Assembly (NCBI RefSeq): GCF_002276225.1 | Contig: NZ_NQNY01000011.1 | Location: 1-48,926 of the forward strand | Direction of reading: 5' to 3' | Length of the DNA: 48,926 bases | Source: Mycoplasmopsis agassizii | GTDB lineage: Bacteria > Bacillota_I > Bacilli_A > Mycoplasmatales > Metamycoplasmataceae | Shown here: positions 12,214 to 40,233 of the stretch, piece by piece | How positions within the stretch are numbered: position 1 is the first letter of the stretch | Layout of the letters: the number at the start of each line of letters is the position of its first letter | Program-made: the position numbers and the translations under genes | Notes under the pieces: generated by a model | Seen by the model: the letters and a program-made list of their open reading frames with translations, nothing else | Told to the model about the DNA's origin: nothing | The model's database searches: none

Positions 12214-12717
12214 ATGAGCAATAAAGATTCAAAAATAGTAGTTAACAGACCGTGTGCAGAAGTGAAAAAGTTAACAAAGACACATGATATGAAAGAAACA
12301 GTTAATTCAGTTGAAATTCACCCATTCACAAATAAAGCCAGATACAAATATGAAGCAGAAGGTGACCCATTACCCCCTATATTACCTCCACCGCTAGGTC
12401 CTACTGATGATGAAGATTTTAACAAAGAATGAGTGCTGAAGCAAATAAGATTAGCTGCAAGTGAATTAAGATCTGAAATGAAAGATGGTAATGAACAGAT
12501 TCGTTCTGAAATGAATCAAAAATTTGATGAAGCAAAGTCTGAAAACCTACAAATAGAAAAAAGAATAGAGAAAAAGTTTGATGCTAAATTGAAAAAAGCA
12601 ACAAACGAAATTCGTTCTGAAATGAAAGAAGGTTTTTCAAGAGCAGAAAAACAAAATAAAGAAACTAATGAAAAGCTTGAAGAAATTTTAGATTTTCTAA
12701 AAAAGAAGGATAAATAA
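12214..12717 (+). CDS. Coiled-coil protein with proline-rich hinge, unknown
   Basis: 167 aa with TGA at 12430 read as Trp. Residues 1-48 form a polar head (NRPCAEVKKLTKTHDMK, EIHPFTNKARYKYEAEG). Residues 49-66 are a Pro-rich hinge (DPLPPILPPPLGPTDD). Residues 73-167 form a long predicted coiled coil with repeated (N)E(Q)IRSEM(N/K) units at about 88, 122 and similar positions. The plan, a small head plus long coiled coil, is like the gene at 26987 and recalls the DUF16-type proteins of M. pneumoniae, but homology is not shown. It stands alone with its own promoter; the next plus-strand unit is the RNA gene. Confidence 0.75.
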
Positions 12718-12807
12718 AAAACTACGAATCTTATTTAAATGTATTAACTTTCAACCAAATCAAAATCTACATTTTTGCAGAAATGCAGTAAAAATTTTAA
12801 AACATTG

Positions 12808-12813
12808 TATAAT
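12808..12813 (+). promoter_or_regulatory. -10 box of the RNA gene
   Basis: TTGTATAAT ending at 12813 is a strong mycoplasma -10 box, and predicts a transcript start near 12820. No good -35 box is seen, as is common in this group. Confidence 0.5.
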
Positions 12814-12819
12814 TTACAC

Positions 12820-13054
12820 AGCATAGGTTATTCTAAACAAAACTTATTTCTTAACTATATGCAAAAAAATTGATCCCCCTCATTAGTTTTAAAACTATCA
12901 CCTAGTACGCCCCATTGCTGTGATAGAAGTTGCTAAAGGCATGAGATATGAGAAAGAGTTAAATTTAATTAACTGTCTAACTAGCGTGTCCTCAAGTGTT
13001 GGATTGGGCTGTCATGCAAGTGGCAGATAAAAGAGCCTTTTTTGGCTCTTTTTT
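12820..13054 (+). ncRNA. Structured, independently terminated RNA of unknown family
   Basis: No protein gene explains 12820-13054. It has a promoter at 12808 and a strong terminator at 13030-13054. The core (about 12870-13028) is clearly richer in G and C than everything around it, a common mark of structured RNA in AT-rich genomes. Pairings seen: CACCTAGT (12899-12906) with ACTAG-C-GTG (12980-12988), one bulge; GTTAA/TTAAC inside it; CTGTCA/TGGCAG (13009-13026); TAGTTTT/AAAACTA near 12885-12897. GCCCCAT with ATTGGGC could add a pseudoknot. I could not match it to tmRNA, RNase P RNA, SRP RNA or 6S RNA signatures, and it is not a tRNA. Confidence 0.55.
13030..13054 (+). terminator. Terminator of the RNA gene
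   Basis: Eight-base-pair stem AAAGAGCC / GGCTCTTT with a T6 loop and a following T-run; the strongest terminator in this region. Confidence 0.85.
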
Positions 13055-13094
13055 ATTAAAACTCAAATTAACTACTTATTTTTATTAAAAATAA

Positions 13095-13118
13095 ACACCA
13101 ATTAATAATGATCGGTGT
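13095..13118 (-). terminator. Weak terminator after the 98-aa unknown gene
   Basis: ACACC/GGTGT stem with a long loop is followed on the minus strand by TTATTTTT, 24 nt past the stop at 13142. Confidence 0.4.
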
Positions 13119-13141
13119 CTATTTGAATAAGTTTTAGATAA

Positions 13142-13438
13142 TTAATTTTTCTTCTTTTTAGGTTCTAGAACAGATATTCTATCTTCCAATTCAAAAACCA
13201 TCTTTTCTAGATCTCAATATCTATCAGCAAGCATTTTCATAGTATCTTCAAAAGTTTTTTGAATATCATCCTGTGTATCAACCATATTGTTATAAGTCTT
13301 AGTTAATTTAAGAAAAGTTGCTTTTAGCCTTGTACTATAACCACCTTGTCTTTTAAGGTCTTCTATTAATTTATTTGCTAACTTTTCCAATTGTTTAATA
13401 CCTAAAGTAGTTTTTCCTAATTTTCTTGATCTTTCCAT
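13142..13438 (-). CDS. Small coiled-coil protein, unknown
   Basis: 98 aa from the ATG at 13438 (MERSRKLGKTTL). TGA at 13214 is Trp. Charged and helical throughout, no signal or membrane segment. The last 25 residues (WDLEKMVFELEDRISVLEP) read as a coiled coil and end in a K-rich tail. A longer frame with a TTG start at 13495 exists but its extra part is hydrophobic and lacks a ribosome site. Size and layout resemble the next gene (13541-13840), so the two may be distant paralogues. Not recognised. Confidence 0.6.
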
Positions 13439-38050: not shown

Positions 38051-40233
38051 TATTTTTGCCTCGGAATTAATCTAATTGCTTCGTGATTTTTCTTAATAAC
38101 TTTTAGCCCTTCTTTTTGAAAGACAACAACAATATCATCTTTATTTTTAATGTCAACAATTTCACCTTCACCAAAACTTCTGTGGGTAACATGATCACCA
38201 ATTACTCAAATTTTTTCTTTTAAATTATGATCTAATTCTTGACCTAAAGAATCTAAATTCATAATATGTTTTTCAAGATCAATATTCATTTCTTTAATAA
38301 ATCTTGAAGGTATCTTTTGCTTGTGAGTTGTTAAATCAACACCTCTTGCGTTTGAGATATATAAGCGCTCTTTTGCTCTTGTAATTGCAACATAAGCAAG
38401 TCTTCTTTCCTCTTCAATTTTGTCTTCATCTTCATTACCATTTTCATCTTGTGTTCTTGAATAAAAAGGGAACGTAGTATCTGACATAGACATTAAAAAT
38501 ACGTTTTCAAATTCCAGTCCTTTTGAATTATGAACTGTCATTAATGAAACATAATTATTACCTTTATTAACTTCTTCATTTTCACTAAATAAGGTTACAT
38601 ATTCAAACCAATCTTTTAGTGTTGCATCAGGATTTTCGTTTTGTCATTTATCTGCAGCACTATAAAGTTCGTTAATAATTTGAATTGCATCATCTTCATC
38701 TTGAGTGTGTTTTTCAAGGTGATTATAAAAGTCAATATTGATTAAAAAGTTTTCTAAAATATAAGAAATTTTTGCTTTGCTTCCTTCGTTAGCAAAGATT
38801 TTTTTGAACTTAGCAATTTCCTTTAAAAAGGCTAATAAGGATTTTCTTTCCTTCGCAGAAATTTTTAATTTGCTATAGTTTTGTAAAAGATACTTATAAA
38901 TTCCATTAGTTTTTTCTAAATCACTTGCATCGATAATCTTTTTCAGTGAATCAGGAGTTACTCTTTGCACAGGTAAATTAATAACATTTTCAAAAGCAAT
39001 GTTACTTGTATCATATAAAACTCTTAAAAATCACATAACTTGTTTTACGATCGGTTGCTCGTAGAATTTAACACCACCATACACAATATGGTTGATGTTT
39101 TCTAAAACAAGTTGTTGTTCAAGTGCTCTAATTAAATAGTTAGAGCGATAAAGAATAGCAATGTTTTTTAATTGAATTTTTTGCTTTTTAAGTTCATTTA
39201 TTTTTGAAACTATTCAGCGAGCTTCAGCTTCAGAACTAAAAGCGTGATTAAATTCAATTTCATGGCCACCTGCTTTACTTGTAAATAAGTTTTTGTCAAA
39301 ACGTAACTTATTTTTTGAAATTAAGCTATTAGCTGCTTCCAAAATTTTCTCGTTAGAACGATAATTCTCAGTTAGCATGATAGTTGTTAAATTAGGGTAA
39401 TCTTGATCAAAGTTTAAAAACAACTTAACATCAGCACCTCGCCATGAATAAATGGTTTGATCAGAATCACCCACTACTGTAACATTAGATTTTTTACTAA
39501 TGATTTCTAAGATACCGTATTGAATAATATTGATATCTTGAAATTCATCAACTAATACATATTTAAATTTATCTTGTCATTCTTCAGCAATTTGCGGGTA
39601 AAAGACTAATAAGCGGTGAGTTAAAATTAGTAGATCTTCTAAATCTAAAATATTATGATTTTTTAAATAAGCATTATAAGCAGCAATTATTTTTTGAATT
39701 GCCACTTCTTCTTCAGGAGTTAAACGAATTCCACTAAGTAGTTGTGAATCAAAAAAATCATTTAATTTGTCATGAGAAATTGCTCTAATAGCAAACTTAT
39801 AACTGATTAAGGTTTCATCGATATTCAGCCTTTTGTAGATTCTTTTCATGATTTCAAGTGTTTCGATATCATCTAGAATTGTGAAATCATTTTTAATTTT
39901 AATTAAATGACTGTCTTTTCTTAGAATCTTTGTACACAAAGTATAAAAAGTTTCCACGTAAACTTTTTTAACTAATTTACCAAGGTGTCGTTGCAAACGA
40001 CGTCGCATGGCGATTGCTGCTTTATTTGTAAAAGTAATTGCTAAAATACTTTCTGGAGCAACATCCATTCTTGTAATTAGATATGAAATCTTACGAGTTA
40101 AAACTTTTGTTTTACCTGTTCCAGCACCTGCAATAATTCTTAGCGAATTAGAGTTATGCAGCACAGCAATTTTTTGTTGTGGATTTAAATCATCAATTAA
40201 AGAATCAATTTTCTTTTCCTCGTTATTAGACAT
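38050..40233 (-). CDS. pcrA: ATP-dependent DNA helicase PcrA/UvrD
   Basis: SF1A 3'-5' helicase for repair and replication, 727 aa with TGA as Trp. Q motif LNPQQKIAV, Walker A GAGTGKT at about 38-44, GDSDQTIYSWRGA (motif III region), TVHNSKGLEFENVFL (motif V) and VAITRAKERLYIS (motif VI). The C-terminal VIGDHVTHRSFGEGEIVDI is the Tudor-like tail of PcrA that contacts RNA polymerase, which the second helicase here lacks. The ATG at 40233 is chosen because GGAAGG sits 8 nt upstream; another ATG lies 6 nt earlier. Overlaps the RDD gene by 8 nt. Confidence 0.93.

What the first reader, a model, noticed from the sequence alone, without database searches (positions are those of the whole stretch)
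12820..13054. Orphan structured RNA gene, possible new mycoplasma RNA family
A 235-nt stretch has a promoter (TATAAT at 12808), a strong terminator (13030-13054), no convincing protein reading, and a core clearly richer in G+C than the AT-rich surroundings. Paired segments are visible: 12899-12906 with 12980-12988, 13009-13014 with 13021-13026, and a possible pseudoknot of GCCCCAT with ATTGGGC. Near its 5' side GATCCCCCTCATT resembles the 3' end of 16S rRNA, so it might pair with G-rich ribosome sites, or this could be chance. It does not show the hallmarks of tmRNA, RNase P RNA, SRP RNA or 6S RNA.
Basis: partly seen in the sequence, partly recalled or inferred. Interest (0 to 1): 0.72.

Follow-up and report, generated by a model that had tools for sequence, protein, structure and literature searches.

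The report
Multicopy pseudoknot RNA in tortoise mycoplasma
The stretch is a genuine small non-coding RNA gene, one of 23 related copies in two strains of a tortoise pathogen, and its place directly in front of genes resembling MazF-type RNA-cutting toxins suggests it is the RNA half of a toxin-antitoxin-like pair.

Summary
In detail: 12820-13054 is a structured RNA gene with its own -10 box and terminator. The window is from Mycoplasmopsis agassizii strain 723. A covariance model finds 8 copies there and 15 in strain PS6, and none credible in 117 other family genomes. Across 21 copies a fold of P1, a pseudoknot, P2, P3, P4 and the terminator keeps 94% of pairs, with 14 pairs changed on both sides (shuffles 5.0). 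There is no conserved ORF and no Rfam match. In PS6 all four genes of the Mbov_0400 family have this RNA directly upstream, terminator between. Mbov_0400 proteins align with MazF/PemK toxins (profile probability 92.5%). In other mycoplasmas a subset of Mbov_0400 genes has other small RNAs in the same place, including the known sRNA MCS4. Best explanation: RNA antitoxin of a type III-like module with one large RNA instead of tandem repeats. The RNA gene is near certain, the pairing with Mbov_0400 well supported, the antitoxin role inferred. In strain 723 no Mbov_0400 gene was found, so the window copy is an orphan.

The parts
12808..12813 (+). -10 box TATAAT (extended TGTATAAT)
   Evidence: sequence; a TATAAT-like box 20-75 nt upstream of the core in nearly all copies, not seen in A3 and A10
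12820..13054 (+). the RNA gene (inferred transcript about 235 nt)
   Evidence: model R1, 200 bits for this copy; 23 copies in two strains
12821..12862 (+). 5' hairpin P0 (GCATAGGTTA 12821-12830 with TAACTATATGC 12852-12862), kept as a hairpin with varying sequence in many copies
   Evidence: minimum-energy fold; upstream sequences
12895..12926 (+). P1: CTATCAC 12895-12901 with GTGATAG 12920-12926
   Evidence: 98.6% of cells paired, 2 pairs changed on both sides
12909..13009 (+). pseudoknot: GCCC-C-ATT 12909-12916 with ATTGGGC 13003-13009 (one U.U mismatch in this copy)
   Evidence: A-U in 12 copies, G-C in 7; rewritten but still pairing in diverged copy L117
12937..12992 (+). P2: AGGCAT 12937-12942 with GTGTCCT 12986-12992
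   Evidence: 97% of cells paired
12957..12974 (+). P3 hairpin: AGTTAA 12957-12962 with TTAACT 12969-12974
   Evidence: 5 of 6 pairs changed on both sides
13010..13025 (+). P4: TGTC 13010-13013 with GGCA 13022-13025; much longer in some copies
   Evidence: 95% of cells paired in the inner part, 8 cells changed on both sides at one pair
13030..13054 (+). intrinsic terminator
   Evidence: 94.7% of cells paired, 2 pairs changed on both sides

Best explanation
A small, independently transcribed, pseudoknotted RNA of about 200-235 nt. It is the RNA half of a module whose protein half is an Mbov_0400-family protein with a MazF/PemK-like N-terminal domain. Most likely the folded RNA binds and restrains that protein, as ToxI restrains the RNase ToxN in type III toxin-antitoxin systems. 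It differs in being one large RNA rather than a row of tandem repeats, and the protein gene often has its own -10 box just after the RNA's terminator. The copy in this window, like all eight in strain 723, is an orphan: no Mbov_0400 gene was found in that draft genome. Shown here: the RNA family and its fold, its place in front of all four Mbov_0400 genes of PS6, recurrence of RNA-terminator-Mbov_0400 in other species, and the profile match to MazF/PemK. Inferred: transcription, binding, toxicity and neutralisation.
For: Fold with compensatory changes: 14 pairs vs 5.0 in shuffles, 0/500. All four PS6 Mbov_0400 genes have the RNA upstream, terminator T-run 22-30 nt before the ATG, kept while proteins diverged to 37-54% identity and RNAs to 61-87%; the closest RNA pair is the closest protein pair. 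Over all Mbov_0400 loci examined (the four of PS6 included) 16 of 46 have a terminator at -70 to -12 against 10 of 164 other ORFs, p=3e-6. In the RNA-linked subgroup a promoter, RNA and terminator are visible. Rfam MCS4 lies directly upstream of Mbov_0400 in G099 and G060 and before a truncated one in G060. Mbov_0400 vs PemK/MazF: hhalign 92.5%, E 4.8e-7, reversed controls 0.2% or less; an HMM of PemK hits Mbov_0400 at 1.4e-5 against 0.12 for reversed.
Against: 11 of 15 RNAs in PS6 and all 8 in strain 723 have no Mbov_0400 beside them, yet many keep their fold. No tandem repeats. ToxN itself is not recovered by profile (0.35%), and the RNA-linked subfamily alone matches PemK poorly (0.48%; the link runs through the wider family at 98.8%). 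The structure model failed (pLDDT 40). Many ICE-type Mbov_0400 genes have no RNA upstream. The four PS6 modules may descend from one duplicated module. Nothing shows expression, toxicity or binding.
Confidence: 0.5

Rival explanations
1. Independent trans-acting regulatory RNA family of M. agassizii (for example controlling lipoprotein or coiled-coil genes), with Mbov_0400 genes only hitchhiking beside a few copies.
For: Most copies are not beside Mbov_0400; several lie at conserved positions in both strains; the coiled-coil family F0 lies within about 1.2 kb of the RNA at 6 of some 14 PS6 loci.
Against: 4 of 4 Mbov_0400 genes in PS6 have it directly upstream, and other small RNAs take the same place in other species. 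F0 has many copies without the RNA. Several orphan copies are decaying: B5 and B6 score low, and one 723 copy has lost its 5' part.
Confidence: 0.22
2. Cis-acting leader: the RNA and its terminator control read-through into the downstream Mbov_0400 gene, like an attenuator or riboswitch.
For: The terminator lies between RNA and gene in all four PS6 modules.
Against: Most copies have no gene, or a convergent gene, downstream; many of the RNA-linked Mbov_0400 genes have a separate TATAAT-like box 8-20 nt before the ATG.
Confidence: 0.12
3. Guide or scaffold RNA: RNA and MazF-like protein form an effector complex whose RNA is needed for activity rather than inhibiting it.
For: Long conserved unpaired blocks (ATCCCCCACATTAGTGTTAAAG, GTTGCTAAAG, CTCAAGT) survive even in the most diverged copy.
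Against: No variable spacer-like segment that would act as a guide is seen; such blocks also fit an inhibitor's binding sites.
Confidence: 0.08
4. A mobile repetitive element spreading without a cellular role.
For: Dispersed, multicopy, differing in copy number between strains.
Against: Compensatory evolution; promoter and terminator kept; at the A13 site strain 723 shows a ragged 5' deletion leaving P4 and the terminator, not a clean empty site.
Confidence: 0.06

Closest known systems
Type III toxin-antitoxin systems (ToxIN; ToxN fold similar to type II RNase toxins, PMC8860590)
   Same: Promoter, pseudoknotted RNA, terminator, then a toxin-like gene in the same direction; a MazF/PemK-like protein domain.
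   Different: One 200-235 nt RNA without tandem repeats; frequent separate promoter-like box for the protein gene; protein not recovered as ToxN by profile; many orphan RNA copies.
MCS4, Mycoplasma sRNA (Rfam RF02713)
   Same: Mycoplasma sRNA with terminator; at its three above-threshold hits here, directly upstream of an Mbov_0400-family gene or its truncated remnant.
   Different: About 120 nt; the MCS4 model does not match this RNA and model R1 finds nothing in the MCS4-bearing genomes that were among those searched (one search lists no match for them); not found in M. agassizii.
MazF/PemK type II toxins (PF02452)
   Same: N-terminal domain of Mbov_0400 aligns over 111 columns.
   Different: Type II partners are antitoxin proteins; here the consistent neighbour is an RNA. 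The long C-terminal part is specific to Mbov_0400.
Mbov_0400 family ICE protein (NF045891)
   Same: The four PS6 neighbours belong to it (71-90 bits, cut-off 55).
   Different: Described only as an ICE protein; no RNA partner is recorded in the model's name.

Membership tests
Type III toxin-antitoxin (ToxIN) | Antitoxin RNA made of tandem nucleotide repeats | tested here: not met
   Tandem Repeats Finder: 0 arrays in 12700-13150
Type III toxin-antitoxin (ToxIN) | RNA forms a pseudoknot | tested here: met
   Covarying pseudoknot, rewritten but pairing in L117; by comparison only, no probing
Type III toxin-antitoxin (ToxIN) | Terminator between RNA and downstream toxin gene | tested here: met
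   All four PS6 modules, T-run 22-30 nt before the ATG; not for the window copy, which has no Mbov_0400 gene
Type III toxin-antitoxin (ToxIN) | Toxin with a MazF/CcdB-like endoribonuclease fold | tested here: inconclusive
   Profile match to PemK/MazF 92.5% but failed structure model and no match to the ToxN profile
Type III toxin-antitoxin (ToxIN) | Toxicity relieved by the RNA through direct binding | not testable with these tools
   Needs expression and binding experiments
MCS4 (RF02713) | Match to the covariance model at gathering score | tested here: not met
   No match in the window, even at E 10 over 12700-13150, nor at E<=0.001 in G000 or G001
Known Rfam RNA families in general (tmRNA, RNase P, SRP, 6S and others) | Match at gathering score | tested here: not met

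The most novel reading that the evidence does not exclude
Mollicutes carry a widespread RNA-protein toxin-antitoxin class: MazF-like Mbov_0400 proteins each restrained by a dedicated folded sRNA. The RNAs belong to several families with no detectable similarity, including this one and MCS4, a named mycoplasma sRNA for which I found no described function. In M. agassizii the RNA half has multiplied into 8-15 copies, orphan copies acting as spare antitoxins.
Probability: 0.35. Interest if true: 0.85.

Novelty: new variant of a known kind. Interest (0 to 1): 0.7.

Why it matters
It would add an RNA family absent from Rfam with strong comparative support, give a testable role to the sRNA MCS4, and show that type III-like RNA antitoxins can be single large RNAs exchanged for dissimilar RNAs between species while the protein partner stays the same. 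It would also offer a reason why a reduced genome keeps many copies of one sRNA gene.

Tried and rejected
Rfam at gathering and relaxed thresholds: nothing credible. Phage, plasmid and viral collections: no relatives; three viral pattern hits lie in what looks like one near-identical coding sequence and were set aside. R1 hits in G107 (within a predicted ORF that looks like ribosomal protein S20) and G112 (its sequence resembles RNase P RNA, by eye, not tested) rejected. Structure prediction of the Mbov_0400 protein: pLDDT 40, not used, no fold search run. Profile against solved structures: nothing useful. Coiled-coil gene F0 as partner: enriched but many copies lack the RNA. Clean mobile insertion: the one site examined shows partial deletion in strain 723. 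Homology of this RNA to MCS4: not detected.

Full report
Identity. The window is contig C2 of a 1,211,209-base, 40-contig assembly, which matches M. agassizii strain 723 in PMC5921776. The close relative G001 is strain PS6 (its contig of 571,355 bases matches NQMN01000002).

The observation. Promoter, terminator, GC rise and lack of ORF were confirmed. DNA search found related copies in the same genome and in PS6; a covariance model raised this to 8 and 15, with two further weak hits among 119 family genomes that I judged false. Nearly every copy carries a TATAAT-like box upstream (exceptions A3, A10) and a terminator.

Structure. On 21 aligned copies the fold has 40 pairs: 94.3% of cells pair (shuffled 90.3), 14 pairs change on both sides (5.0), covariation score 0.183 (0.124; slid versions 0.077 or less). 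A fifteenth PS6 copy, 61-65% identical to the other toxin-linked copies, keeps the unpaired blocks almost unchanged while the pseudoknot, P2, P4 and part of P1 are rewritten and still pair. Conserved unpaired blocks with variable but pairing stems suggest binding sites.

Surroundings. Several copies are syntenic between strains. Three PS6 copies precede a gene of about 256 aa, which is NF045891 Mbov_0400; the fourth Mbov_0400 gene of PS6 is preceded by the diverged copy. No Mbov_0400 match was found in strain 723, so the window copy is an orphan, following a coiled-coil gene of a larger paralogous family.

Other species. Reading upstream of Mbov_0400 genes on the correct strand showed, for a subgroup with sequences like RPYVVFYSNDKVYYL, a -10 box, a short GC-richer RNA, a terminator, then often another TATAAT just before the ATG. 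One such RNA is MCS4; all three above-threshold MCS4 hits found sit before an Mbov_0400 gene or its truncated start, and two weaker hits inspected do not. Terminators are enriched before Mbov_0400 genes (16/46, PS6 included, vs 10/164, p=3e-6). My terminator scan missed L121 and L144, where one is visible by eye. For these other RNAs I have no covariation analysis; their minimum-energy folds are mostly not better than shuffled.

The protein. Pfam PF02452 is hit by 2 of 21 members, best E 0.0074. A profile of 56 members aligns with 13 PemK/MazF proteins over 111 columns at 92.5% probability; the known fold relatives PemK and ToxN reach only 12.6% in the same test, and reversed controls 0.2% or less. 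AlphaFold2 with three sequences failed. So a MazF-like domain is likely, not proven. The shared residues include the R-S/T pair after YY; catalysis is untested.

Mechanism. RNA, terminator and MazF-like gene in one direction resemble type III systems (features from PMC8860590), but tandem repeats are absent and the protein gene often has its own -10 box. I therefore say it works like a type III antitoxin, not that it is a member. The main difficulty is the excess of orphan RNAs; some are decaying, others intact. They could be remnants, spare antitoxins, or evidence for another role.

Literature. The searches run found no description of Mbov_0400 or of MCS4's function, and an open paper on mycoplasma toxin-antitoxin systems does not name this pair in the passages searched. 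Subscription papers were not searchable.

Noticed in passing
window 38344-38442 (-): Rfam RF03531 (n00280, C. difficile sRNA within a helicase gene) just over threshold, 65.8 vs 65.2 bits; probably conserved coding sequence.
   Followed up: no
L216 (G000:C36 about 67525): Strain 723 keeps only P4 and the terminator of the RNA copy that is complete in PS6 (L046:3850-4085).
   Followed up: yes
L083 upstream of its Mbov_0400 gene: Two tandem RNA-plus-terminator units in front of one Mbov_0400 gene.
   Followed up: partly
L121:1580-2470: A run of several sRNA units, the first (MCS4) followed by a truncated Mbov_0400 start; looks like a decayed array.
   Followed up: partly
G070, G082, G094: Matches to ToxN proper (PF13958) above cut-off in three genomes of this mycoplasma family.
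   Followed up: no
window 12214-12717 (+): Coiled-coil gene of a paralogous family with many matches in strains 723 and PS6, none in G002 or G003.
   Followed up: partly
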